DNA of 64,000 nucleotides from Pleodorina starrii (lineage: Eukaryota; Chlorophyta; Chlorophyceae; Chlamydomonadales; Volvocaceae): the NCBI GenBank assembly GCA_030267565.1, contig BRXU01000002.1:8871001-8935000 (forward strand), given 5' to 3'. Of the stretch, positions 550 to 56,825 are shown one piece after another. The notes under the pieces were generated by a model that was given only the letters and a program-made list of their open reading frames with translations, made no database searches and was not told where the DNA came from. A program made the position numbers and the translations under genes. How positions within the stretch are numbered: position 1 is the stretch's first letter; each line of letters opens with the position of its first letter.

Positions 550-594
550 CCTCTTCTGCTCAGCCCCAACAATCTTGATACCTCAAAAGCCGAA

Positions 595-26651: not shown

Positions 26652-26929
26652 GGTCACATCCAACCACGGCCACAGCAGACAACCTTTACACCTCCACTGC
26701 TAGCAGGACAAAGGTTAGGGGGGGTAGACAAATCACCCACCCGCATACCCTACCACGCACCAAGCCAGGCAGACGGTGCCTCAGCAGTCTCCGTTGGCTT
26801 TTAGTAGCATGAGAGGATATCTCAGTACGTTCTATCCTGGAATTATATTAGATAACACGGACTACTCTGTACACATTCGGTGACCAAGCGCAGGCAAGCT
26901 GCTGCAAGTATGGACACCAAACCATTTGT

Positions 26930-27001
26930 TGCCCCGTTTGAGGATTGAACTCAAGACCTTTCCCTTACGAAGGGAACGCTCAACCACTAAGCTAACGAGG
27001 C
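26930..27001 (-). tRNA. tRNA-Thr(CGT), array copy 1
   Basis: The minus strand folds as a full 72-nt cloverleaf. Acceptor GCCTCGT/ACGGGGC has one G-U pair. D-arm GCTT...GAGC. Anticodon arm TTCCC-TTCGTAA-GGGAA, anticodon CGT (Thr, codon ACG). T-arm TTGAG-TTCAATC-CTCAA, discriminator A. The A box TAGCTTAGTGG and B box AGTTCAATCC fit Pol III consensus. The variable and T-arm part (AGGTCTTGAGTTC) resembles plant tRNA-Thr. D-loop form GGTTGAG. No intron, no encoded CCA, and no T4 terminator within about 300 nt. Confidence 0.9.
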
Positions 27002-27582
27002 TCGCCCACCAGTATTCGTGCCCTTCACACTCAGTTTCCCACTCTCTCAAACCCACACAGGCCTCAAATGTAGCAAGTCTCTAAGGCGAACACTTCGATC
27101 AATGCGCACACAGAACCTAACCTTGCCACGGCCGAATCCCCAACCATGACGGGCGGGCCCATGCGGCCAGAGTCTCAACCCAGCAGAAAAGCTCAACTTG
27201 GGCAGCGAGCACCAAAGTTATAAATAGGGATAACGATCCCCCTGAATGACGACCGAAGCTCGAAAACACAACTGCACGCAGGCAGCTCGTGGATTTCGTT
27301 GGTGGTCACATCCAACCACGGCCACAGCAGACAACCTTTACACCTCCACTGCTAGCAGGACAAAGGTTAGGGGGGGGTAGACAAATCACCCACCCGCATA
27401 CCCTACCACGCACCAAGCCAGGCAGACGGTGCCTCAGCAGTCTCCATTGGCTTTTAGTAGCATGAGAGGATATCTCAGTACGTTCTATCCTGCAATTATA
27501 TTAGATAACACGGACTACTCAGTGCGCATTCGGTGACCAAGCGCAGGCAAGCTGCTGCAAGTATGGACACCAAACCATTTAT

Positions 27583-27654
27583 TGCCCCGTTTGAGGATTG
27601 AACTCAAGACCTTTCCCTTACGAAGGGAACGCTCAACCACTAAGCTAACGAGGC
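27583..27654 (-). tRNA. tRNA-Thr(CGT), array copy 2
   Basis: Fully paired cloverleaf, D-loop form GGTTGAG. Confidence 0.9.
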
Positions 27655-28235
27655 TCGCCCACCAGTATTCGTGCCCTTCACACTCAGTTTCCCACTCTCT
27701 CAAACCCACACAGGCCTCAAATGTAGCAAGTCTCTAAGGCGAACACTTCGATCAATGCGCACACAGAACCTAACCTTGCCACGGCCGAATCCCCAACCAT
27801 GACGGGCGGGCCCATGCGGCCAGAGTCTCAACCCAGCAGAAAAGCTCAACTTGGGCAGCGAGCACCAAAGTTATAAATAGGGATAACGATCCCCCTGAAT
27901 GACGACCGAAGCTCGAAAACACAACTGCACGCAGGCAGCTCGTGGATTTCGTTGGTGGTCACATCCAACCACGGCCACAGCAGACAACCTTTACACCTCC
28001 ACTGCTAGCAGGACAAAGGTTAGGGGGGGGTAGACAAATCACCCACCCGCATACCCTACCACGCACCCAGCCAGGCAGACGGTGCCTCAGCAGTCTCCAT
28101 TGGCTTTTAGTAGCATGAGAGGATATCTCAGTACGTTCTATCCTGGAATTATATTAGATAACACGGACTACTCTGTGCGCATTCGGTGACCAAGCGCAGG
28201 CAAGCTGCTGCAAGTATGGACACCAAACCATTTGT

Positions 28236-28307
28236 TGCCCCGTTTGAGGATTGAACTCAAGACCTTTCCCTTACGAAGGGAACGCTCTACCACTAAGCTA
28301 ACGAGGC
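28236..28307 (-). tRNA. tRNA-Thr(CGT), array copy 3
   Basis: Fully paired cloverleaf, D-loop form GGTAGAG, the commoner and more canonical type. Confidence 0.9.
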
Positions 28308-28887
28308 TCGCCCACCAGTATTCGTGCCCTTCACACTCAGATTCCAACTCTCTCAAACCCACACAGGCCTCAAATGTAGCAAGTCTCTAAGGCGAACACT
28401 TCGATCAATGCGCACACAGAACCTAACCTTGCCACGGCCGAATCCCCAACCATGACGGGCGGGCCCATGCGGCCAGAGTCTCAACCCAGCAGAAAAGCTC
28501 AACTTGGGCAGCGAGCACCAAAGTTATAAATAGGGATAACGATCCCCCTGAATGACGACCGAAGCTCGAAAACACAACTGCACGCAGGCAGCTCGTGGAT
28601 TTCGTTGGTGGTCACATCCAACCACGGCCACAGCAGACAACCTTTACACCTCCACTGCTAGCAGGACAAAGGTTAGGGGGGGTAGACAAATCACCCACCC
28701 GCATACCCTACCACGCACCAAGCCAGGCAGACGGTGCCTCAGCAGTCTCCATTGGCTTTTAGTAGCATGAGAGGATATCTCAGTACGTTCTATCCTGTAA
28801 TTATATTAGATAACACGGACTACTCAGTGCGCATTCGGTGACCAAGCGCAGGCAAGCTGCTGCAAGTATGGACACCAAACCATTTAT

Positions 28888-28959
28888 TGCCCCGTTTGAG
28901 GATTGAACTCAAGACCTTTCCCTTACGAAGGGAACGCTCTACCACTAGGCTAACGAGGC
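28888..28959 (-). tRNA. tRNA-Thr(CGT), array copy 4
   Basis: D-arm reads GCCT instead of GCTT, giving a C-A mismatch at 12-23. The A box still fits consensus. Otherwise intact. Confidence 0.8.
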
Positions 28960-29540
28960 TCGCCCACCAGTATTCGTGCCCTTCACACTCAGTTTCCCAC
29001 TCTCTCAAACCCACACAGGCCTCAAATGTAGCAAGTCTCTAAGGCGAACACTTCGATCAATGCGCACACAGAACCTAACCTTGCCACGGCCGAATCCCCA
29101 ACCATGACGGGCGGGCCCATGCGGCCAGAGTCTCAACCCAGCAGAAAAGCTCAACTTGGGCAGCGAGCACCAAAGTTATAAATAGGGATAACGATCCCCC
29201 TGAATGACGACCGAAGCTCGAAAACACAACTGCACGCAGGCAGCTCGTGGATTTCGTTGGTGGTCACATCCAACCACGGCCACAGCAGACAACCTTTACA
29301 CCTCCACTGCTAGCAGGACAAAGGTTAGGGGGGGGTAGACAAATCACCCACCCGCATACCCTACCACGCACCCAGCCAGGCAGACGGTGCCTCAGCAGTC
29401 TCCATTGGCTTTTAGTAGCATGAGAGGATATCTCAGTACGTTCTATCCTGGAATTATATTAGATAACACGGACTACTCTGTGCGCATTCGGTGACCAAGC
29501 GCAGGCAAGCTGCTGCAAGTATGGACACCAAACCATTTGT

Positions 29541-29612
29541 TGCCCCGTTTGAGGATTGAACTCAAGACCTTTCCCTTACGAAGGGAACGCTCTACCACTA
29601 AGCTAACGAGGC
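29541..29612 (-). tRNA. tRNA-Thr(CGT), array copy 5
   Basis: Fully paired cloverleaf, GGTAGAG form. Confidence 0.9.
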
Positions 29613-30192
29613 TCGCCCACCAGTATTCGTGCCCTTCACACTCAGATTCCAACTCTCTCAAACCCACACAGGCCTCAAATGTAGCAAGTCTCTAAGGCGA
29701 ACACTTCGATCAATGCGCACACAGAACCTAACCTTGCCACGGCCGAATCCCCAACCATGACGGGCGGGCCCATGCGGCCAGAGTCTCAACCCAGCAGAAA
29801 AGCTCAACTTGGGCAGCGAGCACCAAAGTTATAAATAGGGATAACGATCCCCCTGAATGACGACCGAAGCTCGAAAACACAACTGCACGCAGGCAGCTCG
29901 TGGATTTCGTTGGTGGTCACATCCAACCACGGCCACAGCAGACAACCTTTACACCTCCACTGCTGGCAGGACAAAGGTTAGGGGGGGTAGACAAATCACC
30001 CACCCGCATACCCTACCACGCACCCAGCCAGGCAGACGGTGCCTCAGCAGCCTCCATTGGCTTTTAGTAGCATGAGAGGATATCTCAGTACGTTCTATCC
30101 TGCAATTATATTAGATAACACGGACTACTCTGTGAGCATTCGGTGACCAAGCGCAGGCAAGCTGCTGCAAGTATGGACACCAAACCATTTGT

Positions 30193-30264
30193 TGCCCCGT
30201 TTGAGGATTGAACTCAAGACCTTTCCCTTACGAAGGGAACGCTCTACCACTAAGCTAACGAGGC
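30193..30264 (-). tRNA. tRNA-Thr(CGT), array copy 6
   Basis: Fully paired cloverleaf, GGTAGAG form. Confidence 0.9.
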
Positions 30265-30849
30265 TCGCCCACCAGTAGTCGTGCCCTTCACACTCAGATT
30301 CCAACTCTCTCAAACCCACACAGGCCTCAAATGTAGCAAGTCTCTAAGGCGAACACTTCGATCAATGCGCACACAGAACCTAACCTTGCCACGGCCGAAT
30401 CCCCAACCATGACGGGCGGGCCCATGCGGCCAGAGTCTCAACCCAGCAGAAAAGCTCAACTTGGGCAGCGAGCACCAAAGTTATAAATAGGGATAACGAT
30501 CCCCCTGAATGACGACCGAAGCTCGAAAACACAACTGCACGCAGGCAGCTCGTGGATTTCGTTGGTGGTCACATCCAACCACGGCCACAGCAGACAACCT
30601 TTACACCTCCACTGCTAGCAGGACAAAGGTTAGGGGGGGGTAGACAAATCACCCACCCGCATACCCTACCACGCACCAAGCCAGGCAGACGGTGCCTCAG
30701 CAGTCTCCATTGGCTTTTAGTAGCATGAGAGGATATCTCAGTACGTTCTATCCTGGAATTATATTAGATAACACGGACTACTCTGTGCGCATTCGGTGAC
30801 CATCCAAGCGCAGGCAAGCTGCTGCAAGTATGGACACCAAACCATTTAT

Positions 30850-30921
30850 TGCCCCGTTTGAGGATTGAACTCAAGACCTTTCCCTTACGAAGGGAACGCT
30901 CAACCACTAAGCTAACGAGGC
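30850..30921 (-). tRNA. tRNA-Thr(CGT), array copy 7
   Basis: Fully paired cloverleaf, GGTTGAG form. The unit carries the 4-bp ATCC insertion in its 3' flank. Confidence 0.9.
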
Positions 30922-31502
30922 TCGCCCACCAGTATTCGTGCCCTTCACACTCAGTTTCCCACTCTCTCAAACCCACACAGGCCTCAAATGTAGCAAGTCT
31001 CTAAGGCGAACACTTCGATCAATGCGCACACAGAACCTAACCTTGCCACGGCCGAATCCCCAACCATGACGGGCGGGCCCATGCGGCCAGAGTCTCAACC
31101 CAGCAGAAAAGCTCAACTTGGGCAGCGAGCACCAAAGTTATAAATAGGGATAACGATCCCCCTGAATGACGACCGAAGCTCGAAAACACAACTGCACGCA
31201 GGCAGCTCGTGGATTTCGTTGGTGGTCACATCCAACCACGGCCACAGCAGACAACCTTTACACCTCCACTGCTAGCAGGACAAAGGTTAGGGGGGGGTAG
31301 ACAAATCACCCACCCGCATACCCTACCACGCACCCAGCCAGGCAGACGGTGCCTCAGCAGTCTCCATTGGCTTTTAGTAGCATGAGAGGATATCTCAGTA
31401 CGTTCTATCCTGGAATTATATTAGATAACACGGACTACTCTGTGCGCATTCGGTGACCAAGTGCAGGCAAGCTGCTGCAAGTATGGACACCAAACCATTT
31501 GT

Positions 31503-31574
31503 TGCCCCGTTTGAGGATTGAACTCAAGACCTTTCCCTTACGAAGGGAACGCTCTACCACTAAGCTAACGAGGC
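31503..31574 (-). tRNA. tRNA-Thr(CGT), array copy 8
   Basis: Fully paired cloverleaf, GGTAGAG form. Confidence 0.9.
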
Positions 31575-32159
31575 TCGCCCACCAGTATTCGTGCCCTTCA
31601 CACTCAGATTCCAACTCTCTCAAACCCACACAGGCCTCAAATGTAGCAAGTCTCTAAGGCGAACACTTCGATCAATGCGCACACAGAACCTAACCTTGCC
31701 ACGGCCGAATCCCCAACCATGACGGGCGGGCCCATGCGGCCAGAGTCTCAACCCAGCAGAAAAGCTCAACTTGGGCAGCGAGCACCAAAGTTATAAATAG
31801 GGATAACGATCCCCCTGAATGACGACCGAAGCTCGAAAACACAACTGCACGCAGGCAGCTCGTGGATTTCGTTGGTGGTCACATCCAACCACGGCCACAG
31901 CAGACAACCTTTACACCTCCACTGCTAGCAGGACAAAGGTTAGGGGGGGGTAGACAAATCACCCACCCGCATACCCTACCACGCACCCAGCCAGGCAGAC
32001 GGTGCCTCAGCAGTCTCCATTGGCTTTTAGTAGCATGAGAGGATATCTCAGTACGTTCTATCCTGGAATTATATTAGATAACACGGACTACTCTGTGCGC
32101 ATTCGGTGACCATCCAAGCGCAGGCAAGCTGCTGCAAGTATGGACACCAAACCATTTAT

Positions 32160-32231
32160 TGCCCCGTTTGAGGATTGAACTCAAGACCTTTCCCTTACGA
32201 AGGGAACGCTCAACCACTAAGCTAACGAGGC
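32160..32231 (-). tRNA. tRNA-Thr(CGT), array copy 9
   Basis: Fully paired cloverleaf, GGTTGAG form, ATCC insertion in the 3' flank as in copy 7. Confidence 0.9.
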
Positions 32232-32812
32232 TCGCCCACCAGTATTCGTGCCCTTCACACTCAGTTTCCCACTCTCTCAAACCCACACAGGCCTCAAATG
32301 TAGCAAGTCTCTAAGGCGAACACTTCGATCAATGCGCACACAGAACCTAACCTTGCCACGGCCGAATCCCCAACCATGACGGGCGGGCCCATGCGGCCAG
32401 AGTCTCAACCCAGCAGAAAAGCTCAACTTGGGCAGCGAGCACCAAAGTTATAAATAGGGATAACGATCCCCCTGAATGACGACCGAAGCTCGAAAACACA
32501 ACTGCACGCAGGCAGCTCGTGGATTTCGTTGGTGGTCACATCCAACCACGGCCACAGCAGACAACCTTTACACCTCCACTGCTAGCAGGACAAAGGTTAG
32601 GGGGGGGTAGACAAATCACCCACCCGCATACCCTACCACGCACCCAGCCAGGCAGACGGTGCCTCAGCAGTCTCCATTGGCTTTTAGTAGCATGAGAGGA
32701 TATCTCAGTACGTTCTATCCTGGAATTATATTAGATAACACGGACTACTCTGTGCGCATTCGGTGACCAAGCGCAGGCAAGCTGCTGCAAGTATGGACAC
32801 CAAACCATTTGT

Positions 32813-32884
32813 TGCCCCGTTTGAGGATTGAACTCAAGACCTTTCCCTTACGAAGGGAACGCTCTACCACTAAGCTAACGAGGC
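32813..32884 (-). tRNA. tRNA-Thr(CGT), array copy 10
   Basis: Fully paired cloverleaf, GGTAGAG form. Confidence 0.9.
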
Positions 32885-33465
32885 TCGCCCACCAGTATTC
32901 GTGCCCTTCACACTCAGATTCCAACTCTCTCAAACCCACACAGGCCTCAAATGTAGCAAGTCTCTAAGGCGAACACTTCGATCAATGCGCACACAGAACC
33001 TAACCTTGCCACGGCCGAATCCCCAACCATGACGGGCGGGCCCATGCGGCCAGAGTCTCAACCCAGCAGAAAAGCTCAACTTGGGCAGCGAGCACCAAAG
33101 TTATAAATAGGGATAACGATCCCCCTGAATGACGACCGAAGCTCGAAAACACAACTGCACGCAGGCAGCTCGTGGATTTCGTTGGTGGTCACATCCAACC
33201 ACGGCCACAGCAGACAACCTTTACACCTCCACTGCTAGCAGGACAAAGGTTAGGGGGGGGTAGACAAATCACCCACCCGCATACCCTACCACGCACCCAG
33301 CCAGGCAGACGGTGCCTCAGCAGCCTCCATTGGCTTTTAGTAGCATGAGAGGATATCTCAGTACGTTCTATCCTGCAATTATATTAGATAACACGGACTA
33401 CTCTGTGAGCATTCGGTGACCAAGCGCAGGCAAGCTGCTGCAAGTATGGACACCAAACCATTTGT

Positions 33466-33537
33466 TGCCCCGTTTGAGGATTGAACTCAAGACCTTTCCC
33501 TTACGAAGGGAACGCTCTACCACTAAGCTAACGAGGC
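33466..33537 (-). tRNA. tRNA-Thr(CGT), array copy 11
   Basis: Fully paired cloverleaf, GGTAGAG form. Confidence 0.9.
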
Positions 33538-34118
33538 TCGCCCACCAGTATTCGTGCCCTTCACACTCAGATTCCAACTCTCTCAAACCCACACAGGCCT
33601 CAAATGTAGCAAGTCTCTAAGGCGAACACTTCGATCAATGCGCACACAGAACCTAACCTTGCCACGGCCGAATCCCCAACCATGACGGGCGGGCCCATGC
33701 GGCCAGAGTCTCAACCCAGCAGAAAAGCTCAACTTGGGCAGCGAGCACCAAAGTTATAAATAGGGATAACGATCCCCCTGAATGACGACCGAAGCTCGAA
33801 AACACAACTGCACGCAGGCAGCTCGTGGATTTCGTTGGTGGTCACATCCAACCACGGCCACAGCAGACAACCTTTACACCTCCACTGCTAGCAGGACAAA
33901 GGTTAGGGGGGGGTAGACAAATCACCCACCCGCATACCCTACCACGCACCCAGCCAGGCAGACGGTGCCTCAGCAGTCTCCATTGGCTTTTAGTAGCATG
34001 AGAGGATATCTCAGTACGTTCTATCCTGGAATTATATTAGATAACACGGACTACTCTGTGCGCATTCGGTGACCAAGCGCAGGCAAGCTGCTGCAAGTAT
34101 GGACACCAAACCATTTGT

Positions 34119-34190
34119 TGCCCCGTTTGAGGATTGAACTCAAGACCTTTCCCTTACGAAGGGAACGCTCTACCACTAAGCTAACGAGGC
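34119..34190 (-). tRNA. tRNA-Thr(CGT), array copy 12
   Basis: Fully paired cloverleaf, GGTAGAG form. Confidence 0.9.
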
Positions 34191-34771
34191 TCGCCCACCA
34201 GTATTCGTGCCCTTCACACTCAGATTCCAACTCTCTCAAACCCACACAGGCCTCAAATGTAGCAAGTCTCTAAGGCGAACACTTCGATCAATGCGCACAC
34301 AGAACCTAACCTTGCCACGGCCGAATCCCCAACCATGACGGGCGGGCCCATGCGGCCAGAGTCTCAACCCAGCAGAAAAGCTCAACTTGGGCAGCGAGCA
34401 CCAAAGTTATAAATAGGGATAACGATCCCCCTGAATGACGACCGAAGCTCGAAAACACAACTGCACGCAGGCAGCTCGTGGATTTCGTTGGTGGTCACAT
34501 CCAACCACGGCCACAGCAGACAACCTTTACACCTCCACTGCTAGCAGGACAAAGGTTAGGGGGGGGTAGACAAATCACCCACCCGCATACCCTACCACGC
34601 ACCCAGCCAGGCAGACGGTGCCTCAGCAGCCTCCATTGGCTTTTAGTAGCATGAGAGGATATCTCAGTACGTTCTATCCTGCAATTATATTAGATAACAC
34701 GGACTACTCTGTGAGCATTCGGTGACCAAGCGCAGGCAAGCTGCTGCAAGTATGGACACCAAACCATTTGT

Positions 34772-34843
34772 TGCCCCGTTTGAGGATTGAACTCAAGACC
34801 TTTCCCTTACGAAGGGAACGCTCTACCACTAAGCTAACGAGGC
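34772..34843 (-). tRNA. tRNA-Thr(CGT), array copy 13
   Basis: Fully paired cloverleaf, GGTAGAG form. Confidence 0.9.
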
Positions 34844-35424
34844 TCGCCCACCAGTATTCGTGCCCTTCACACTCAGATTCCAACTCTCTCAAACCCACAC
34901 AGGCCTCAAATGTAGCAAGTCTCTAAGGCGAACACTTCGATCAATGCGCACACAGAACCTAACCTTGCCACGGCCGAATCCCCAACCATGACGGGCGGGC
35001 CCATGCGGCCAGAGTCTCAACCCAGCAGAAAAGCTCAACTTGGGCAGCGAGCACCAAAGTTATAAATAGGGATAACGACCCCCCTGAATGACGACCGAAG
35101 CTCGAAAACACAACTGCACGCAGGCAGCTCGTGGATTTCGTTGGTGGTCACATCCAACCACGGCCACAGCAGACAACCTTTACACCTCCACTGCTAGCAG
35201 GACAAAGGTTAGGGGGGGGTAGACAAATCACCCACCCGCATACCCTACCACGCACCAAGCCAGGCAGACGGTGCCTCAGCAGTCTCCATTGGCTTTTAGT
35301 AGCATGAGAGGATATCTCAGTACGTTCTATCCTGGAATTATATTAGATAACACGGACTACTCTGTGCGCATTCGGTGACCAAGCGCAGGCAAGCTGCTGC
35401 AAGTATGGACACCAAACCATTTAT

Positions 35425-35496
35425 TGCCCCGTTTGAGGATTGAACTCAAGACCTTTCCCTTACGAAGGGAACGCTCAACCACTAAGCTAACGAGGC
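35425..35496 (-). tRNA. tRNA-Thr(CGT), array copy 14
   Basis: Fully paired cloverleaf, GGTTGAG form. Confidence 0.9.
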
Positions 35497-36081
35497 TCGC
35501 CCACCAGTATTCGTGCCCTTCACACTCAGATTCCAACTCTCTCAAACCCACACAGGCCTCAAATGTAGCAAGTCTCTAAGGCGAACACTTCGATCAATGC
35601 GCACACAGAACCTAACCTTGCCACGGCCGAATCCCCAACCATGACGGGCGGGCCCATGCGGCCAGAGTCTCAACCCAGCAGAAAAGCTCAACTTGGGCAG
35701 CGAGCACCAAAGTTATAAATAGGGATAACGATCCCCCTGAATGACGACCGAAGCTCGAAAACACAACTGCACGCAGGCAGCTCGTGGATTTCGTTGGTGG
35801 TCACATCCAACCACGGCCACAGCAGACAACCTTTACACCTCCACTGCTAGCAGGACAAAGGTTAGGGGGGGGTAGACAAATCACCCACCCGCATACCCTA
35901 CCACGCACCCAGCCAGGCAGACGGTGCCTCAGCAGCCTCCATTGGCTTTTAGTAGCATGAGAGGATATCTCAGTACGTTCTATCCTGCAATTATATTAGA
36001 TAACACGGACTACTCTGTGCGCATTCGGTGACCATCCAAGCGCAGGCAAGCTGCTGCAAGTATGGACACCAAACCATTTAT

Positions 36082-36153
36082 TGCCCCGTTTGAGGATTGA
36101 ACTCAAGACCTTTCCCTTACGAAGGGAACGCTCAACCACTAAGCTAACGAGGC
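36082..36153 (-). tRNA. tRNA-Thr(CGT), array copy 15
   Basis: Fully paired cloverleaf, GGTTGAG form, ATCC insertion in the 3' flank. Confidence 0.9.
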
Positions 36154-36734
36154 TCGCCCACCAGTATTCGTGCCCTTCACACTCAGTTTCCCACTCTCTC
36201 AAACTCACACAGGCCTCAAATGTAGCAAGTCTCTAAGGCGAACACTTCGATCAATGCGCACACAGAACCTAACCTTGCCACGGCCGAATCCCCAACCATG
36301 ACGGGCGGGCCCATGCGGCCAGAGTCTCAACCCAGCAGAAAAGCTCAACTTGGGCAGCGAGCACCAAAGTTATAAATAGGGATAACGATCCCCCTGAATG
36401 ACGACCGAAGCTCGAAAACACAACTGCACGCAGGCAGCTCGTGGATTTCGTTGGTGGTCACATCCAACCACGGCCACAGCAGACAACCTTTACACCTCCA
36501 CTGCTAGCAGGACAAAGGTTAGGGGGGGGTAGACAAATCACCCACCCGCATACCCTACCACGCACCCAGCCAGGCAGACGGTGCCTCAGCAGCCTCCATT
36601 GGCTTTTAGTAGCATGAGAGGATATCTCAGTACGTTCTATCCTGCAATTATATTAGATAACACGGACTACTCTGTGAGCATTCGGTGACCAAGCGCAGGC
36701 AAGCTGCTGCAAGTATGGACACCAAACCATTTGT

Positions 36735-36806
36735 TGCCCCGTTTGAGGATTGAACTCAAGACCTTTCCCTTACGAAGGGAACGCTCTACCACTAAGCTAA
36801 CGAGGC
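36735..36806 (-). tRNA. tRNA-Thr(CGT), array copy 16
   Basis: Fully paired cloverleaf, GGTAGAG form. Confidence 0.9.
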
Positions 36807-40002: not shown

Positions 40003-40066
40003 TGCCCCGTTTGAGGATTGACCTTTCCCTTACGAAGGGAACGCTCTACCACTAAGCTAACGAGGC
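40003..40066 (-). pseudogene. tRNA-Thr pseudogene, array copy 21
   Basis: An 8-nt deletion removes the 5' strand of the T-stem and part of the variable region, leaving 64 nt. The T-arm cannot form. Same deletion as copy 23. Confidence 0.85.
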
Positions 40067-46510: not shown

Positions 46511-46582
46511 TGCACCGTTTGAGGATTGAACTCAAGACCTTTCCCTTACGAAGGGAACGCTCTACCACTAAGCTAACGAGGC
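46511..46582 (-). tRNA. tRNA-Thr(CGT)-like, array copy 31, acceptor mismatch
   Basis: Acceptor 3' strand reads ACGGTGC, giving a C-U mismatch at the third pair. Other arms intact. Same as copy 32. Confidence 0.7.
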
Positions 46583-47163
46583 TCGCCCACCAGTCTTCGT
46601 GCCCTTCACACTCAGATTCCCACTCTCTCAAACCCACACAGGCCTCAAATGTAGCAAGTCTCTAAGGCGAACACTTCGATCAATGCGCACACAGAACCTA
46701 ACCTTGCCACGGCCGAATCCCCAACCATGACGGGCGGGCCCATGCGGCCAGAGTCTCAACCCAGCAGAAAAGCTCAACTTGGGCAGCGAGCACCAAAGTT
46801 ATAAATAGGGATAACGATCCCCCTGAATGACGACCGAAGCTCGAAAACACAACTGCACGCAGGCAGCTCGTGGATTTCGTTGGTGGTCACATCCAACCAC
46901 GGCCACAGCAGACAACCTTTACACCTCCACTGCTAGCAGGACAAAGGTTAGGGGGGGGTAGACAAATCACCCACCCGCATACCCTACCACGCACCCAGCC
47001 AGGCAGACGGTGCCTCAGCAGTCTCCATTGGCTTTTAGTAGCATGAGAGGATATCTCAGTACGTTCTATCCTGGAATTATATTAGATAACACGGACTACT
47101 CTGTGCGCATTCGGTGACCAAGCGCAGGCAAGCTGCTGCAAGTATGGACACCAAACCATTTAT

Positions 47164-47235
47164 TGCACCGTTTGAGGATTGAACTCAAGACCTTTCCCTT
47201 ACGAAGGGAACGCTCTACCACTAAGCTAACGAGGC
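47164..47235 (-). tRNA. tRNA-Thr(CGT)-like, array copy 32, acceptor mismatch
   Basis: Same acceptor mismatch as copy 31; the two units look like a recent duplication. Confidence 0.7.
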
Positions 47236-47815
47236 TCGCCCACCAGTCTTCGTGCCCTTCACACTCAGATTCCCACTCTCTCAAACCCACACAGGCCTCA
47301 AATGTAGCAAGTCTCTAAGGCGAACACTTCGATCAATGCGCACACAGAACCTAACCTTGCCACGGCCGAATCCCCAACCATGACGGGCGGGCCCATGCGG
47401 CCAGAGTCTCAACCCAGCAGAAAAGCTCAACTTGGGCAGCGAGCACCAAAGTTATAAATAGGGATAACGATCCCCCTGAATGACGACCGAAGCTCGAAAA
47501 CACAACTGCACGCAGGCAGCTCGTGGATTTCGTTGATGGTCACATCCAACCACGGCCACAGCAGACAACCTTTACACCTCCACTGCTAGCAGGACAAAGG
47601 TTAGGGGGGGTAGACAAATCACCCACCCGCATACCCTACCACGCTCCAAGCCAGGCAGACGGCGCCTCAGCAGTCTCCATTGGCTTTTAGTAGCATGAGA
47701 GGATATCTCAGTACGTTCTATCCTGCTATTATATTAGATAACACGGACTACTCTGTGAGCATTCGGTGACCAAGCGCAGGCAAGCTGCTGCAAGTATGGA
47801 CACCAAACCATTTGT

Positions 47816-47887
47816 TGCCCCGTTTGAGGATTGAACTCAAGACCTTTCCCTTACGAAGGGAACGCTCTACCACTAAGCTAACGAGGC
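47816..47887 (-). tRNA. tRNA-Thr(CGT), array copy 33
   Basis: Fully paired cloverleaf, GGTAGAG form. Confidence 0.9.
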
Positions 47888-48467
47888 TCGCCCACCAGTA
47901 TTCGTGCCTTTCACACTCAGATTGCAACTCTCTCAAACCCACACAGGCCTCAAATGTAGCAAGTCTCTAAGGCGAACACTTCGATCAATGCGCACACAGA
48001 ACCTAACCTTGCCACGGCCGAATCCCCAACCATGACGGGCGGGCCCATGCGGCCAGAGTCTCAACCCAGCAGAAAAGCTCAACTTGGGCAGCGAGCACCA
48101 AAGTTATAAATAGGGATAACGATCCCCCTGAATGACGACCGAAGCTCGAAAACACAACTGCACGCAGGCAGCTCGTGGATTTCGTTGGTGGTCACATCCA
48201 ACCACGGCCACAGCAGACAACCTTTACACCTCCACTGCTAGCAGGACAAAGGTTAGGGGGGGTAGACAAATCACCCACCCGCATACCCTACCACGCTCCA
48301 AGCCAGGCAGACGGCGCCTCAGCAGTCTCCATTGGCTTTTAGTAGCATGAGAGGATATCTCAGTACGTTCTATCCTGCAATTATATTAGATAACACGGAC
48401 TACTCTGTGAGCATTCGGTGACCAAGCGCAGGCAAGCTGCTGCAAGTATGGACACCAAACCATTTGT

Positions 48468-48539
48468 TGCCCCGTTTGAGGATTGAACTCAAGACCTTTC
48501 CCTTACGAAGGGAACGCTCTACCACTAAGCTAACGAGGC
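48468..48539 (-). tRNA. tRNA-Thr(CGT), array copy 34
   Basis: Fully paired cloverleaf, GGTAGAG form. Confidence 0.9.
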
Positions 48540-49120
48540 TCGCCCACCAGTATGCGTGCCCTTCACACTCAGATTCCAACTCTCTCAAACCCACACAGGC
48601 CTCAAATGTAGCAAGTCTCTAAGGCGAACACTTCGATCAATGCGCACACAGAACCTAACCTTGCCACGGCCGAATCCCCAACCATGACGGGCGGGCCCAT
48701 GCGGCCAGAGTCTCAACCCAGCAGAAAAGCTCAACTTGGGCAGCGAGCACCAAAGTTATAAATAGGGATAACGATCCCCCTGAATGACGACCGAAGCTCG
48801 AAAACACAACTGCACGCAGGCAGCTCGTGGATTTCGTTGGTGGTCACATCCAACCACGGCCACAGCAGACAACCTTTACACCTCCACTGCTAGCAGGACA
48901 AAGGTTAGGGGGGGGTAGACAAATCACCCACCCGCATACCCTACCACGCACCAAGCCAGGCAGACGGTGCCTCAGCAGTCTCCATTGGCTTTTAGTAGCA
49001 TGAGAGGATATCTCAGTACGTTCTATCCTGCAATTATATTAGATAACACGGACTACTCTGTGAGCATTCGGTGACCAAGCGCAGGCAAGCTGCTGCAAGT
49101 ATGGACACCAAACCATTTTT

Positions 49121-49192
49121 TGCCCCGTTTGAGGATTGAACTCAAGACCTTTCCCTTACGAAGGGAACGCTCTACCACTAAGCTAACGAGGC
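49121..49192 (-). tRNA. tRNA-Thr(CGT), array copy 35
   Basis: Fully paired cloverleaf, GGTAGAG form; the 3' flank begins with six A. Confidence 0.9.
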
Positions 49193-49773
49193 TCGCCCAC
49201 CAGTCTTCGTGCCCTTCACACTCAGATTCCCACTCTCTCAAACCCACACAGGCCTCAAATGTAGCAAGTCTCTAAGGCGAACACTTCGATCAATGCGCAC
49301 ACAGAACCTAACCTTGCCACGGCCGAATCCCCAACCATGACGGGCGGGCCCATGCGGCCAGAGTCTCAACCCAGCAGAAAAGCTCAACTTGGGCAGCGAG
49401 CACCAAAGTTATAAATAGGGATAACGATCCCCCTGAATGACGACCGAAGCTCGAAAACACAACTGCACGCAGGCAGCTCGTGGATTTCGTTGGTGGTCAC
49501 ATCCAACCACGGCCACAGCAGACAACCTTTACACCTCCACTGCTAGCAGGACAAAGGTTAGGGGGGGGTAGACAAATCACCCACCCGCATACCCTACCAC
49601 GCACCAAGCCAGGCAGACGGTGCCTCAGCAGTCTCCATTGGCTTTTAGTAGCATGAGAGGATATCTCAGTACGTTCTATCCTGCAATTATATTAGATAAC
49701 ACGGACTACTCTGTGCGCATTCGGTGACCAAGCGCAGGCAAGCTGCTGCAAGTATGGACACCAAACCATTTAT

Positions 49774-49845
49774 TGCCCCGTTTGAGGATTGAACTCAAGA
49801 CCTTTCCCTTACGAAGGGAACGCTCTACCACTAAGCTAACGAGGC
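49774..49845 (-). tRNA. tRNA-Thr(CGT), array copy 36
   Basis: Fully paired cloverleaf, GGTAGAG form. It is the last copy with no structural damage. Confidence 0.9.
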
Positions 49846-50426
49846 TCGCCCACCAGTTTTCGTGCCCTTCACACTCAGATTCCAACTCTCTCAAACCCAC
49901 ACAGGCCTCAAATGTAGCAAGTCTCTAAGGCGAACACTTCGATCAATGCGCACACAGAACCTAACCTTGCCACGGCCGAATCCCCAACCATGACGGGCGG
50001 GCCCATGCGGCCAGAGTCTCAACCCAGCAGAAAAGCTCAACTTGGGCAGCGAGCACCAAAGTTATAAATAGGGATAACGATCCCCCTGAATGACGACCGA
50101 AGCTCGAAAACACAACTGCACGCAGGCAGCTCGTGGATTTCGTTGGTGGTCACATCCAACCACGGCCACAGCAGACAACCTTTACACCTCCACTGCTAGC
50201 AGGACAAAGGTTAGGGGGGGGTAGACAAATCACCCACCCGCATACCCTACCACGCACCAAGCCAGGCAGACGGTGCCTCAGCAGTCTCCATTGGCTTTTA
50301 GTAGCATGAGAGGATATCTCAGTACGTTCTATCCTGGAATTATATTAGATAACACGGACTACTCTGTGCGCATTCGGTGACCAAGCGCAGGCAAGCTGCT
50401 GCAAGTATGGACACCAAACCATTTAT

Positions 50427-50498
50427 TGCACCGTCTGAGGATTGAACACAAGACCTTTCCCTTACGAAGGGAACGCTCTACCACTAAGCTAACGAGGC
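50427..50498 (-). pseudogene. Decayed tRNA-Thr, array copy 37
   Basis: Acceptor C-U mismatch plus changes on both strands of the T-stem (TTGTG against CTCAG). Confidence 0.7.
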
Positions 50499-51077
50499 TC
50501 GCCCACCAGTCTTCGTGCCCTTCACACTCAGATTCCAACTCTCTCAAACCCACACAGGCCTCAAATGTAGCAAGTCTCTAAGGCGAACACTTCGATCAAT
50601 GCGCACACAGAACCTAACCTTGCCACGGCCGAATCCCCAACCATGACGGGCGGGCCCATGCGGCCAGAGTCTCAACCCAGCAGAAAAGCTCAACTTGGGC
50701 AGCGAGCACCAAAGTTATAAATAGGGATAACGATCCCCCTGAATGACGACCGAAGCTCGAAAACACAACTGCACGCAGGCAGCTCGTGGATTTCGTTGGT
50801 GGTCACATCCAACCACGGCCACAGCAGACAACCTTTACACCTCCACTGCTAGCAGGACAAAGGTTAGGGGGGGTAGACAAATCACCCACCCGCATACCCT
50901 ACCACGCACCAAGCCAGGCAGACGGTGCCTCAGCAGTCTCCATTGGCTTTTAGTAGCATGAGAGGATATCTCAGTACGTTCTATCCTGGAATTATATTAG
51001 ATAACACGGACTACTCTGTGCGCATTCGGTGACCAAGCGCAGGCAAGCTGCTGCAAGTATGGACACCAAACCATTAT

Positions 51078-51149
51078 TGCACCGTTTGAGGATTGCACTC
51101 AAGACCTTTCCCTTACGAAGGGAACGCTCTACCACTAAGCTAACGAGGC
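51078..51149 (-). pseudogene. Decayed tRNA-Thr, array copy 38
   Basis: Acceptor C-U mismatch, and the T-loop reads TGCAATC, losing the invariant U55 and damaging the B box. Confidence 0.7.
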
Positions 51150-51729
51150 TCGCCCACCAGTCTTCGTGCCCTTCACACTCAGATTCCAACTCTCTCAAAC
51201 CCACACAGGCCTCAAATGTAGCAAGTCTCTAAGGCGAACACTTCGATCAATGCGCACACAGAACCTAACCTTGCCACGGCCGAATCCCCAACCATGACGG
51301 GCGGGCCCATGCGGCCAGAGTCTCAACCCAGCAGAAAAGCTCAACTTGGGCAGCGAGCACCAAAGTTATAAATAGGGATAACGATCCCCCTGAATGACGA
51401 CCGAAGCTCGAAAACACAACTGCACGCAGGCAGCTCGTGGATTTCGTTGGTGGTCACATCCAACCACGGCCACAGCAGACAACCTTTACACCTCCACTGC
51501 TAGCAGGACAAAGGTTAGGGGGGGGTAGACAAATCACCCACCCGCATACCCTACCACGCACCAAGCCAGGCAGACGGTGCCTCAGCAGTCTCCATTGGCT
51601 TTTAGTAGCATGAGAGGATATCTCAGTACGTTCTATCCTGGAATTATATTAGATAACACGGACTACTCTGTGCGCATTCGGTGACCAAGCGCAGGCAAGC
51701 TGCTGCAAGTATGGACACCAAACCATTAT

Positions 51730-51801
51730 TGCACCGTTTGAGGATTGCACTCAAGACCTTTCCCTTACGAAGGGAACGCTCTACCACTAAGCTAACGAGG
51801 C
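51730..51801 (-). pseudogene. Decayed tRNA-Thr, array copy 39
   Basis: Same acceptor and T-loop changes as copy 38. Confidence 0.7.
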
Positions 51802-52381
51802 TCGCCCACCAGTCTTCGTGCCTTTCACACTCAGATTCCAACTCTCTCAAACCCACACAGGCCTCAAATGTAGCAAGTCTCTAAGGCGAACACTTCGATC
51901 AATGCGCACACAGAACCTAACCTTGCCACGGCCGAATCCCCAACCATGACGGGCGGGCCCATGCGGCCAGAGTCTCAACCCAGCAGAAAAGCTCAACTTG
52001 GGCAGCGAGCACCAAAGTTATAAATAGGGATAACGATCCCCCTGAATGACGACCGAAGCTCGAAAACACAACTGCACGCAGGCAGCTCGTGGATTTCGTT
52101 GGTGGTCACATCCAACCACGGCCACAGCAGACAACCTTTACACCTCCACTGCTAGCAGGACAAAGGTTAGGGGGGGGTAGACAAATCACCCACCCGCATA
52201 CCCTACCACGCACCAAGCCAGGCAGACGGTGCCTCAGCAGTCTCCATTGGCTTTTAGTAGCATGAGAGGATATCTCAGTACGTTCTATCCTGGAATTATA
52301 TTAGATAACACGGACTACTCTGTGCGCATTCGGTGACCAAGCGCAGGCAAGCTGCTGCAAGTATGGACACCAAACCATTAT

Positions 52382-52453
52382 TGCACCGTTTGAGGATTGC
52401 ACTCAAGACCTTTCCCTTACGAAGGGGACGCTCTACCACTAAGCTAACGAGGC
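52382..52453 (-). pseudogene. Decayed tRNA-Thr, array copy 40
   Basis: Changes of copy 38 plus an anticodon-stem C-A mismatch (TCCCC against GGGAA). Confidence 0.7.
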
Positions 52454-53034
52454 TCGCCCACCAGTATTCGTGCCCTTCACACTCAGATTCCCACTCTCTC
52501 AAACCCACACAGGCCTCAAATGTAGCAAGTCTCTAAGGCGAACACTTCGATCAATGCGCACACAGAACCTAACCTTGCCACGGCCGAATCCCCAACCATG
52601 ACGGGCGGGCCCATGCGGCCAGAGTCTCAACCCAGCAGAAAAGCTCAACTTGGGCAGCGAGCACCAAAGTTATAAATAGGGATAACGATCCCCCTGAATG
52701 ACGACCGAAGCTCGAAAACACAACTGCACGCAGGCAGCTCGTGGATTTCGTTGGTGGTCACATCCAACCACGGCCACAGCAGACAACCTTTACACCTCCA
52801 CTGCTAGCAGGACAAAGGTTAGGGGGGGGTAGACAAATCACCCACCCGCATACCCTACCACGCACCAAGCCAGGCAGACGGTGCCTCAGCAGTCTCCATT
52901 GGCTTTTAGTAGCATGAGAGGATATCTCAGTACGTTCTATCCTGGAATTATATTAGATAACACGGACTACTCTGTGCGCATTCGGTGACCAAGCGCAGGC
53001 AAGCTGCTGCAAGTATGGACACCAAACCATTTAT

Positions 53035-53106
53035 TGCACCGTTTGAGGTTTGAACACAAGACCTTTCCCTTACGAAGGGAACGCTCTACCACTAAGCTAA
53101 CGAGGC
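53035..53106 (-). pseudogene. Decayed tRNA-Thr, array copy 41
   Basis: Acceptor C-U mismatch, T-stem TTGTG, and T-loop TTCAAAC. Confidence 0.65.
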
Positions 53107-53687
53107 TCGCCCACCAGTCTTCGTGCCTTTCACACTCAGATTCCCACTCTCTCAAACCCACACAGGCCTCAAATGTAGCAAGTCTCTAAGGCGAACACTT
53201 CGATCAATGCGCACACAGAACCTAACCTTGCCACGGCCGAATCCCCAACCATGACGGGCGGGCCCATGCGGCCAGAGTCTCAACCCAGCAGAAAAGCTCA
53301 ACTTGGGCAGCGAGCACCAAAGTTATAAATAGGGATAACGATCCCCCTGAATGACGACCGAAGCTCGAAAACACAACTGCACGCAGGCAGCTCGTGGATT
53401 TCGTTGGTGGTCACATCCAACCACGGCCACAGCAGACAACCTTTACACCTCCACTGCTAGCAGGACAAAGGTTAGGGGGGGGTAGACAAATCACCCACCC
53501 GCATACCCTACCACGCACCAAGCCAGGCAGACGGTGCCTCAGCAGTCTCCATTGGCTTTTAGTAGCATGAGAGGATATCTCAGTACGTTCTATCCTGGAA
53601 TTATATTAGATAACACGGACTACTCTGTGAGCATTCGGTGACCAAGCGCAGGCAAGCTGCTGCAAGTATGGACACCAAACCATTTAT

Positions 53688-53759
53688 TGCACCGTTTGAG
53701 GTTTGAACACAAGACCTTTCCCTTATGAAGGGAACGCTCTACCACTAAGCTAACGAGGC
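53688..53759 (-). tRNA. tRNA-like with CAT anticodon, array copy 42
   Basis: The anticodon loop reads TTCATAA, so the anticodon is CAT (Met) in a Thr-type body. It also has copy 41's acceptor, T-stem and T-loop changes, so it may be non-functional. Confidence 0.6.
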
Positions 53760-54340
53760 TCGCCCACCAGTATTCGTGCCCTTCACACTCAGATTCCAAC
53801 TCTCTCAAACCCACACAGGCCTCAAATGTAGCAAGTCTCTAAGGCGAACACTTCGATCAATGCGCACACAGAACCTAACCTTGCCACGGCCGAATCCCCA
53901 ACCATGACGGGCGGGCCCATGCGGCCAGAGTCTCAACCCAGCAGAAAAGCTCAACTTGGGCAGCGAGCACCAAAGTTATAAATAGGGATAACGATCCCCC
54001 TGAATGACGACCGAAGCTCGAAAACACAACTGCACGCAGGCAGCTCGTGGATTTCGTTGGTGGTCACATCCAACCACGGCCACAGCAGACAACCTTTACA
54101 CCTCCACTGCTAGCAGGACAAAGGTTAGGGGGGGGTAGACAAATCACCCACCCGCATACCCTACCACGCACCAAGCCAGGCAGACGGTGCCTCAGCAGTC
54201 TCCATTGGCTTTTAGTAGCATGAGAGGATATCTCAGTACGTTCTATCCTGGAATTATATTAGATAACACGGACTACTCTGTGCGCATTCGGTGACCAAGC
54301 GCAGGCAAGCTGCTGCAAGTATGGACACCAAACCATTTAA

Positions 54341-54410
54341 TGCCCCGTTTGAGGATTGCACTCAAGACCTTTCCCTTACGAAGGACGCTCTACCACTAAG
54401 CTAACGAGGC
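54341..54410 (-). pseudogene. tRNA-Thr pseudogene, array copy 43
   Basis: A 2-nt deletion in the anticodon stem (plus strand ACGAAGGACG) and T-loop TGCAATC. 70 nt. Confidence 0.8.
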
Positions 54411-54991
54411 TCGCCCACCAGTATTCGTGCCCTTCACACTCAGATTCCCACTCTCTCAAACCCACACAGGCCTCAAATGTAGCAAGTCTCTAAGGCGAAC
54501 ACTTCGATAAATGCGCACACAGAACCTAACCTTGCCACGGCCGAATCCCCAACCATGACGGGCGGGCCCATGCGGCCAGAGTCTCAACCCAGCAGAAAAG
54601 CTCAACTTGGGCAGCGAGCACCAAAGTTATAAATAGGGATAACGATCCCCCTGAATGACGACCGAAGCTCGAAAACACAACTGCACGCAGGCAGCTCGTG
54701 GATTTCGTTGGTGGTCACATCCAACCACGGCCACAGCAGACAACCTTTACACCTCCACTGCTAGCAGGACAAAGGTTAGGGGGGGGTAGACAAATCACCC
54801 ACCCACATACCCTACCACGCACCAAGCCAGGCAGACGGTGCCTCAGCAGTCTCCATTGGCTTTTAGTAGCATGAGAGGATATCTCAGTACGTTCTATCCT
54901 GGAATTATATTAGATAACACGGACTACTCTGTGCGCATTCGGTGACCAAGCGCAGGCAAGCTGCTGCAAGTATAGACACCAAACCATTTAA

Positions 54992-55061
54992 TGCCCCGTT
55001 TGAGGATTGCACTCAAGACCTTTCCCTTACGAAGGACGCTCTACCACTAAGCTAACGAGGC
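54992..55061 (-). pseudogene. tRNA-Thr pseudogene, array copy 44
   Basis: Same 2-nt deletion and T-loop change as copy 43. Confidence 0.8.
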
Positions 55062-55642
55062 TCGCCCACCAGTATTCGTGCCCTTCACACTCAGATTCCC
55101 ACTCTCTCAAACCCACACAGGCCTCAAATGTAGCAAGTCTCTAAGGCGAACACTTCGATCAATGCGCACACAGAACCTAACCTTGCCACGGCCGAATCCC
55201 CAACCATGACGGGCGGGCCCATGCGGCCAGAGTCTCAACCCAGCAGAAAAGCTCAACTTGGGCAGCGAGCACCAAAGTTATAAATAGGGATAACGATCCC
55301 CCTGAATGACGACAGAAGCTCGAAAACACAACTGCACGCAGGCAGCTCGTGGATTTCGTTGGTGGTCACATCCAACCACGGCCACAGCAGACAACCTTTA
55401 CACCTCCACTGCTAGCAGGACAAAGGTTAGGGGGGGGTAGACAAATCACCCACCCGCATACCCTACCACGCACCAAGCCAGGCAGACGGTGCCTCAGCAG
55501 TCTCCATTGGCTTTTAGTAGCATGAGAGGATATCTCAGTACGTTCTATCCTGGAATTATATTAGATAACACGGACTACTCTGTGCGCATTCGGTGACCAA
55601 GCGCAGGCAAGCTGCTGCAAGTATGGACACCAAACCATTTAT

Positions 55643-55714
55643 TGCCCCGTTTGAGGATTGCACTCAAGACCTTTCCCTTACGAAGGGAACGCTCTACCAC
55701 TAAGCTAACGAGGC
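55643..55714 (-). tRNA. tRNA-Thr(CGT)-like, array copy 45, T-loop change
   Basis: All stems pair, but the T-loop reads TGCAATC (U55 lost, B box weakened). Confidence 0.6.
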
Positions 55715-56295
55715 TCGCCCACCAGTATTCGTGCCCTTCACACTCAGATTCCCACTCTCTCAAACCCACACAGGCCTCAAATGTAGCAAGTCTCTAAGGC
55801 GAACACTTCGATCAATGCGCACACAGAACCTAACCTTGCCACGGCCGAATCCCCAACCATGACGGGCGGGCCCATGCGGCCAGAGTCTCAACCCAGCAGA
55901 AAAGCTCAACTTGGGCAGCGAGCACCAAAGTTATAAATAGGGATAACGATCCCCCTGAATGACGACAGAAGCTCGAAAACACAACTGCACGCAGGCAGCT
56001 CGTGGATTTCGTTGGTGGTCACATCCAACCACGGCCACAGCAGACAACCATTACACCTCCACTGCTAGCAGGACAAAGGTTAGGGGGGGGTAGACAAATC
56101 ACCCACCCGCATACCCTACCACGCACCAAGCCAGGCAGACGGTGCCTCAGCAGTCTCCATTGGCTTTTAGTAGCATGAGAGGATATCTCAGTACGTTCTA
56201 TCCTGGAATTATATTAGATAACACGGACTACTCTGTGCGCATTCGGTGACCAAGCGCAGGCAAGCTGCTGCAAGTATGGACACCAAACCATTTAT

Positions 56296-56367
56296 TGCCC
56301 CGTTTGAGGATTGCACTCAAGACCTTTCCCTTACGAAGGGAACGCTCTACCACTAAGCTAACGAGGC
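56296..56367 (-). tRNA. tRNA-Thr(CGT)-like, array copy 46, T-loop change
   Basis: Same as copy 45. The unit has an extra TAAA at 56417-56420 upstream of the tRNA. It is the last tRNA-bearing unit. Confidence 0.6.
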
Positions 56368-56825
56368 TCGCCCACCAGTATTCGTGCCCTTCACACTCAG
56401 ATTCCCACTCTCTCAAATAAACCCACACAGGCCTCAAATGTAGCAAGTCTCTAAGGCGAACACTTCGATCAATGCGCACACAGAACCTAACCTTGCCACG
56501 GCCGAATCCCCAACCATGACGGGCGGGCCCATGCGGCCAGAGTCTCAACCCAGCAGAAAAGCTCAACTTGGGCAGCGAGCACCAAAGTTATAAATAGGGA
56601 TAACGATCCCCCTGAATGACGACCGAAGCTCGAAAACACAACTGCACGCAGGCAGCTCGTGGATTTCGTTGGTGGTCACATCCAACCACGGCCACAGCAG
56701 ACAACCTTTACACCTCCACTGCTAGCAGGACAAAGGTTAGGGGGGGTAGACAAATCACCCACCCGCATACCCTACAACCGAAGCACACAGTGTGTCAGAC
56801 GTCTCCATTGACTTTTAGTAGCGAT

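What the first reader, a model, noticed from the sequence alone, without database searches (positions are those of the whole stretch)
26652..56825. A 30-kb satellite in which every unit is a tRNA-Thr(CGT) gene cassette (46 copies)
Seen: 46 head-to-tail ~653-bp units, each with a 72-nt minus-strand sequence folding as a tRNA-Thr with anticodon CGT, A and B boxes and discriminator A. About 27 copies are fully paired. Known: tandem tRNA arrays are described in a few eukaryotes (Entamoeba, for example), but a satellite built on one Thr isoacceptor is unusual. Inference: it could supply extra tRNA for ACG codons, act as a Pol III-bound chromatin structure (insulator or centromere-like), or be a satellite that captured a tRNA gene and is kept by unequal exchange.
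Basis: partly seen in the sequence, partly recalled or inferred. Interest (0 to 1): 0.88.

Follow-up and report, generated by a model that had tools for sequence, protein, structure and literature searches.

The report
Tandem tRNA-Thr gene array, green alga
A real 30-kb head-to-tail array of 46 copies of one tRNA gene in what looks like a Volvox-type green alga, and one of at least eight such arrays in that genome, whose copies differ from each other mostly around the tRNA genes.

Summary
In detail: 46 of 46 units of about 653 bp (window 26652-56673) reach the Rfam tRNA cut-off. Sixteen of 46 tRNAs are identical to two dispersed tRNA-Thr(CGT) genes; none of the last 10 is. A spacer pattern occurs 46 times in the genome, all here. 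At least seven other tandem tRNA arrays exist in this genome: Thr-AGT, Lys-CTT, Gly-GCC+Arg-ACG, Arg-TCG, Trp-CCA+Glu-CTC, Ile-AAT, Met-CAT+Tyr-GTA. A volvocine alga is inferred. Differences between units concentrate within 50 nt of tRNA genes in three arrays (86 events, 35.8 expected, circular-shift p 1.5e-4). Downstream they are frequent in three of four genes whose first T4 is far and absent in three of three with a near T4. I read this as transcription-associated mutation in Pol III-transcribed arrays kept by unequal exchange; there are no RNA data. Thr(CGT) bodies vary as much as their flanks, so single copies seem barely constrained. An insulator or centromere role could not be tested. 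Tandem tRNA arrays are known elsewhere; this is a new member with a testable mutation pattern.

The parts
26652..56673 (-). 46 head-to-tail units of 645-657 bp, each with one tRNA gene on the minus strand
   Evidence: unit motif positions and alignment; spacer pattern found only here
56674..56825 (-). partial last unit, diverged in its second part, without tRNA
   Evidence: sequence
26930..27001 (-). tRNA-Thr(CGT) of unit 1 (A21 to U), first of 46
   Evidence: Rfam 62.5 bits
28236..28307 (-). tRNA-Thr(CGT) of unit 3, identical to dispersed genes L001 and L002; one of 16 such copies (units 3,5,6,8,10,11,12,13,16,25,28,29,33,34,35,36)
   Evidence: 66.1 bits; identity
27957..28609 (-). unit 3 as example unit: variable zone 27990-28359 (tRNA, about 50 nt of 5' flank, about 250 nt of 3' flank), quiet zone 28360-28609
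   Evidence: 54 variant events mapped on the consensus of 46 units
27916..27919 (-). first TTTT on the tRNA strand downstream of the unit-3 tRNA, at +317
27872..27879 (+). TATAAATA on the opposite strand in the quiet zone (unit 2 as example); meaning unknown
   Evidence: sequence
40003..40066 (-). unit 21 tRNA with an 8-nt deletion in the T arm (unit 23 has the same)
   Evidence: 41.4 bits
50427..56367 (-). tRNAs of units 37-46, none identical to the dispersed genes: degenerate edge of the array
53688..53759 (-). unit 42 tRNA with anticodon changed to CAT and stem changes

Best explanation
A tandem tRNA gene array. A segment with one tRNA-Thr(CGT) gene was duplicated head to tail and is kept similar by unequal exchange and conversion (inferred from the identity pattern). 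It is one of at least eight such arrays in this alga (shown). The copies are, or were until recently, transcribed by RNA polymerase III in the germ line, and transcription raises mutation in the tRNA, its 5' flank and, where no T4 stops the polymerase, downstream (inferred). About a third of the copies are intact and can add redundantly to the tRNA-Thr(CGT) pool (inferred); single copies are under little selection, so one edge decays.
For: 46 of 46 tRNA hits; 16 of 46 identical to dispersed genes. Neighbouring units differ at 8.4 columns on average against 9.6 in shuffled order; 4 of 5000 shuffles as low. At least seven other arrays. Variant events within 50 nt of tRNAs: Thr-CGT 31 of 54, Trp-Glu 25 of 54, Gly-Arg 30 of 49; pooled 86 against 35.8, circular-shift p 1.5e-4. 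In the Gly-Arg unit the two hot spots lie over the two tRNA genes that ARAGORN finds. Downstream +16 to +100: genes with T4 within 20 nt (Trp, Glu, Ile) 0 events against 6.0 expected; T4 beyond 100 nt (Thr-CGT, Arg, Lys, Thr-AGT) 38 against 16.2. Thr-CGT body 19.4 events per 100 nt, 5' and 3' flanks 20.0 and 14.0, rest 4.8.
Against: No RNA data. The arrayed Thr(CGT) genes lack a near T4 and the CAT/CAA just upstream that 11 of 13 non-array genes looked at show. Single-array shift p values are only 0.049, 0.041 and 0.021; Lys (a stretch picked through high-scoring tRNAs) 0.19, Thr-AGT 0.26, Ile 0.20. Arg (T4 at +240) has no downstream excess (2 against 2.7); Lys and Thr-AGT have no 5' excess (0 and 1 events); the Lys zone does not stop at its T4 (6 events from T4+30 to T4+130), and 5 Trp events lie at +1 to +15 with T4 at +8. 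The downstream zone was set after Thr-CGT, Trp-Glu and Lys had been seen, and the Poisson tests treat events as independent.
Confidence: 0.55

Rival explanations
1. Silent satellite: the segment was amplified as a satellite, the tRNA is a passenger, is not transcribed now, and decays.
For: No T4 for 317 nt and no CAT/CAA just upstream; 28 of 46 copies carry a change other than U20 to C; the Arabidopsis SYY cluster is silent in most tissues (PMC12308677, abstract).
Against: 16 copies still identical to dispersed genes; the spacer varies less than the tRNA zone, which plain neutral decay does not predict.
Confidence: 0.2
2. Dosage array: many copies are kept by selection to supply tRNA-Thr(CGT).
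For: 16 intact copies. In other arrays more copies share the commonest body in the stretches held: Thr-AGT 14 of 17, Ile 8 of 8, Lys 16 of 18 in one block but 7 of 15 in the other.
Against: Thr(CGT) body as variable as its flanks; three dispersed Thr(CGT) genes.
Confidence: 0.15
3. The quiet 250-bp zone upstream of the tRNA, not the tRNA, is the selected element (a promoter or RNA gene on the plus strand with TATAAATA).
For: 4 of 54 events in 250 nt; a diverged 170-bp copy of part of it at C2:8.8086 Mb (L004, 72% identity).
Against: No Rfam match to it even at relaxed threshold; L004 lacks the TATAAATA; two other arrays show a tRNA-centred pattern too.
Confidence: 0.08
4. Pol III-bound chromatin structure: boundary, replication-fork barrier or centromere-like element.
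For: A human tRNA tandem repeat binds CTCF (PMC4041453, abstract). A survey notes that tDNA clusters can interfere with replication forks (PMC2888827, section read); fork pausing could also make a local mutation excess.
Against: Nothing here tests it; four arrays on one contig do not suggest a centromere.
Confidence: 0.05
5. Assembly artefact.
For: Tandem arrays are hard to assemble; copy number may be off.
Against: Flanks without any match to the unit on both sides, inside a 9-Mb contig, and unit-specific variants.
Confidence: 0.02

Closest known systems
Entamoeba tRNA gene arrays (PMC2652664; start of abstract and passages seen)
   Same: Head-to-tail units with one or several tRNA genes; many arrays in one genome; homogenised copies; some tRNAs dispersed.
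   Different: Entamoeba histolytica has 25 array units holding almost all tRNA genes, with short tandem repeats between genes; none was found in this array, and dispersed genes of the same tRNA coexist here.
Arabidopsis SYY (Ser-Tyr-Tyr) cluster (PMC12308677; abstract, section 7 and passages seen)
   Same: Core of uniform copies, edges rich in altered copies; dispersed genes of the same tRNA.
   Different: Three genes per unit; methylation and tissue expression known there, unknown here.
Tandem tRNA clusters in 50 plant species (PMC12652284; passages seen)
   Same: Clusters of 2 to 110 genes; repeated multi-isotype clusters in species coded Ath, Cre and Cpu; Cre is called an alga there (I take it to be Chlamydomonas reinhardtii).
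   Different: Tandem is defined there as genes less than 1 kb apart; no unit structure or mutation pattern in the passages seen.
Volvox carteri and Chlamydomonas tDNA clusters in a survey (PMC2888827; section 6 and passages seen)
   Same: V. carteri 1051 tDNAs, 41% clustered within 1 kb; C. reinhardtii 336, 56%. Possibly the same or related arrays.
   Different: Counts only in what was seen.
Arabidopsis tRNA-Cys cluster (PMC10701932; start of abstract and passages seen)
   Same: One isoacceptor per short unit (about 0.42 kb), pseudogene at an edge.
   Different: Four copies against 46.
Human tRNA VNTR at 1q23.3 (PMC4041453; abstract seen)
   Same: tRNA-bearing tandem repeat, 9-43 units per allele.
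   Different: 7.3-kb units that bind CTCF.

Membership tests
Functional eukaryotic tRNA-Thr(CGT) gene | Cloverleaf with CGT anticodon, discriminator A, intact A and B boxes | tested here: met
   For part of the copies: 16 of 46 identical to dispersed genes, 18 of 46 with no change at a paired or near-invariant position
Functional eukaryotic tRNA-Thr(CGT) gene | Near T4 terminator and CAT/CAA just upstream | tested here: not met
   First T4 at +317 and 5' flank ending GGGCGA in unit 3, no variant in the 12 nt before the tRNA in 46 units. Of 13 non-array genes, 10 have T4 within 38 nt and 11 have CAT or CAA; dispersed Thr(CGT) gene L001 also has its T4 far away, at +188. That the motif matters is recalled for plants, not shown
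Tandem tRNA gene array (Entamoeba type) | Head-to-tail units each with tRNA gene(s) | tested here: met
   sibling arrays
Tandem tRNA gene array (Entamoeba type) | Short tandem repeats between genes | tested here: not met
   Tandem Repeats Finder (periods up to 500) lists no row inside 26652-56825
Tandem tRNA gene array (Entamoeba type) | Almost all tRNA genes of the genome are arrayed | tested here: inconclusive
   At least 11 tRNA kinds arrayed, but dispersed genes exist, lists were cut at about 100 rows and one pattern did not complete
Arabidopsis SYY-like cluster | Uniform core with altered copies at edges | tested here: met
   Partly: identical copies per block of 12, 12, 12, 10 units are 7, 2, 7, 0, so one edge is altered and the second block is mixed too
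Arabidopsis SYY-like cluster | DNA methylation and tissue-limited expression | not testable with these tools
   no methylome or RNA data
tRNA-derived SINE | Copies dispersed in the genome | tested here: not met
   Spacer pattern with up to 3 mismatches found 46 times, all in this array
Centromere or insulator | CENP-A, TFIIIC or cohesin occupancy | not testable with these tools
   no ChIP data

The most novel reading that the evidence does not exclude
A volvocine alga has reorganised much of its tRNA gene set into tandem arrays of one- and two-gene units, and within them mutation is concentrated in the Pol III transcription zone: the tRNA, its leader and, where no terminator is near, the read-through stretch. 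The array copies then record Pol III transcription, terminator leakage and different strength of selection (Thr-CGT bodies nearly free, other arrays apparently less so) inside one genome.
Probability: 0.3. Interest if true: 0.72.

Novelty: new member of a known kind. Interest (0 to 1): 0.55.

Why it matters
Arrays covering at least 11 tRNA kinds put Entamoeba-like tRNA organisation into what looks like a model lineage for multicellularity. Dozens of near-identical tRNA genes on known strands, with near or far terminators, make a built-in experiment on transcription-associated mutation and on how much a redundant tRNA gene is constrained.

Tried and rejected
Searched two units for other RNA families at relaxed threshold: tRNA, plus a chance-level match to the tRNA stretch on the other strand. 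Considered a SINE: rejected, the spacer is not dispersed. The 4674 first-look tRNA candidates, of which 63 were scored, suggested thousands of tRNA genes; one search shows many dispersed, SINE-like tRNA strings among the 100 or so rows listed, so no total is claimed. An apparent hypermutated stretch after the Lys tRNA between sub-blocks was a replaced segment. A first Lys count was inflated by an edge unit and redone without it. Species: an rbcL search found nothing and six protein homologues had no names. ACG codon use was looked at in four window ORFs, two of them of a retroelement, and not used.
Full report
What is there. The window is bases 8,871,001-8,935,000 of a 9.03-Mb contig (C2) of a 136-Mb assembly in 95 contigs. 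From 26652 to 56673 it holds 46 head-to-tail units of 645-657 bp, then a 152-bp partial unit. Each unit carries one tRNA on the minus strand; 46 of 46 reach the Rfam cut-off, 39 are called by ARAGORN. The consensus reads tRNA-Thr with anticodon CGT. A 36-base spacer pattern, up to 3 mismatches, occurs 46 times in the genome, all in this array. Units are on average 98.5% identical. Neither flank in the window matches the unit.

State of the copies. Sixteen of 46 tRNAs are identical to two dispersed genes on contigs C19 and C6 (L001, L002); a third, variant Thr(CGT) gene lies on C11 (L003). Nine have A21 changed to U, two U20 to C, two U55 to G alone, and the other 17 have a stem change, an indel or several changes, one of them including an anticodon change to CAT. 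Identical copies per block of 12, 12, 12 and 10 units are 7, 2, 7 and 0: the right edge is degenerate, and the second block is mixed. Adjacent units differ at 8.4 columns against 9.6 in shuffled orders, 4 of 5000 shuffles being as low; the correlation of difference with distance is weak (rho 0.14). Alike pairs such as units 21/23, 31/32 and 38/39 point to local duplication. This is what unequal exchange and conversion would give; it is inference.

Transcription signals. The first T4 on the tRNA strand lies 317 nt downstream, and the 5' flank ends in GGGCGA (unit 3; no variant in the last 12 nt in 46 units). Of 13 non-array tRNA genes looked at, a C40 pair included, 10 have T4 within 38 nt and 11 have CAT or CAA just upstream; L001, L015 and L016 have a far T4. 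That plant tRNA genes use a CAA start motif is recalled, not from a call.

The array is one of many. The same genome shows: tRNA-Lys(CTT), about 1425-bp units, C2 6.656-6.737 Mb with interruptions, 33 genes in the two stretches held, 6.699-6.710 Mb not fetched; tRNA-Arg(TCG), 162-bp units, 5 copies; Gly(GCC)+Arg(ACG), 1527-bp units, C2 6.12-6.32 Mb, 85 Arg rows before the list was cut; Trp(CCA)+Glu(CTC), about 1.78-kb units from the start of C3, 17 Trp and 17 Glu-type genes in the first 35 kb, one of the latter with a CTT anticodon, with further Trp-type hits to 122 kb; Thr(AGT), 554- or 631-bp units, C29, 48 rows; Ile(AAT), 1250-bp units, C30, 21 rows; Met(CAT)+Tyr(GTA), about 2.49-kb units, C36, 8 rows before the cut. 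So at least eight arrays with 11 tRNA kinds. The survey is incomplete: lists stop at about 100 rows and one pattern did not complete. Pattern hits with reversed-pattern controls: 445 against 96, 451 against 137, 155 against 1.

Organism. C2 begins with TTTTAGGG repeats, the Chlamydomonas type (recalled), and Pfam DUF3707, the pherophorin domain (name recalled), gives 157 matches (150 of 306 candidates scored). A volvocine green alga, probably Volvox, is inferred. A survey counted 1051 tDNAs in Volvox carteri, 41% clustered (PMC2888827, passages and one section).

Where the copies differ. I counted each kind of difference between units once. Thr(CGT), 46 units, 54 events per 653 nt (61 before a nine-column block shared by two units was counted as one): tRNA body 14 in 72 nt, 5' flank 10 in 50, 3' flank 7 in 50, rest 23 in 481; 4 of 54 fall in the 250 nt far upstream. 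Trp-Glu, 16 units, 54 events (56 before three long insertions were counted as one): 25 within 50 nt of the two tRNAs, 10.5 expected. Gly-Arg, 18 units, 49 events (51 before two at alignment ends were dropped): 30 against 11.1. Lys, 17 units of a stretch chosen through high-scoring tRNAs, 35 events (39 before four at alignment ends were dropped): 8 against 4.3. Circular-shift p values are 0.049, 0.041, 0.021 and 0.19; pooled over the first three, 86 against 35.8, p 1.5e-4. Thr(AGT), 11 of 17 units used: 13 against 8.8, p 0.26; Ile, 6 of 8 used: 4 against 1.8, p 0.20.

Terminators. In the 85 nt from +16 to +100 after the tRNA, the three genes with T4 within 20 nt (Trp, Glu, Ile) have 0 events against 6.0 expected (Poisson 0.0024); the four with T4 beyond 100 nt have 38 against 16.2 (2.6e-6): Lys 12, Thr-AGT 14, Thr-CGT 10, Arg 2; Gly, with T4 at +32, has 4 against 2.7. 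The zone was set after Thr-CGT, Trp-Glu and Lys had been seen; of those examined later, Thr-AGT and Ile fit and Arg does not. From T4+30 to T4+130 there are 6 events in Lys, 3 in Gly, 2 each in Trp, Arg and Thr-AGT, 0 in Thr-CGT, Glu and Ile, so the edge is not sharp everywhere. The 5' peak is not general either: Lys 0 and Thr-AGT 1 event in 50 nt. The Poisson tests treat events as independent.

Constraint on the tRNA body. Copies with the commonest body: Thr-CGT 16 of 46; Trp 7 of 17, Glu-type 10 of 17, Lys 7 of 15 and 16 of 18 in two blocks, Thr-AGT 14 of 17 and Ile 8 of 8 in the stretches held. In the list, 8 of 48 Thr-AGT and 5 of 21 Ile rows differ in the stretch shown. Thr(CGT) is thus among the least constrained, but the other arrays are not free of changed copies.

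Reading. Raised mutation in tRNA flanks from transcription is described for tRNA genes: one held paper says so and cites Thornlow et al. 2018 (PMC8113476, passage); the original was not held. The pattern here fits Pol III transcription-associated mutation, with read-through where the terminator is far. If so the arrays are transcribed in the germ line. In Thr(CGT) the body is as variable as the flanks, so copies are nearly free of constraint. Rivals are a silent satellite, a dosage array, a selected element in the quiet zone, and mutation at replication forks stalled by tRNA genes.

In print. In the listings (12-15 rows shown of up to 1,313 papers) no title or abstract start describes such arrays in volvocine algae. 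PMC12652284 (passages) reports repeated multi-isotype tRNA clusters in a species coded Cre, an alga, so tandem tRNA clusters in this lineage may already be partly known. The library lacks most subscription journals.

Noticed in passing
window 4674-10121: Ty3/gypsy-type retroelement ORFs: gag-like, and pol with reverse transcriptase, RNase H, integrase zinc finger and chromodomain.
   Followed up: no
window 560-2503 and 621-931: ORF whose listed text looks like retroelement protease and RT (by eye), running into a (TGTTG)n repeat; no family search was run on it.
   Followed up: no
window 56616-57131: A 171-aa ORF starts 27 nt after the start of the TATAAATA of the last full unit and runs out of the array into the right flank; no Pfam match.
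   Followed up: partly
window 57393-58373 and 59080-59949: Two ORFs without Pfam match; the first has six unnamed homologues.
   Followed up: partly
L004 (C2:8808556): A 170-bp stretch, 72% identical to part of the unit's quiet zone, about 89 kb from the array; the only non-tRNA match listed.
   Followed up: partly
L045 1049-1122: Glu-type tRNA with CTT anticodon in the first unit of the C3 array; could misread AAG if expressed.
   Followed up: no
L045 about 4920-5240: tRNA-like, SINE-type insertion inside a Trp-Glu unit, present in two units.
   Followed up: no
C2:6.665-6.690 Mb against 6.656-6.664 and 6.710-6.737 Mb: Two kinds of Lys units that differ by a replaced segment just downstream of the tRNA.
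   Followed up: partly
C2:9024254-9026253 (L047): Contig end made of a GGCCCCCGGA-type short repeat.
   Followed up: no
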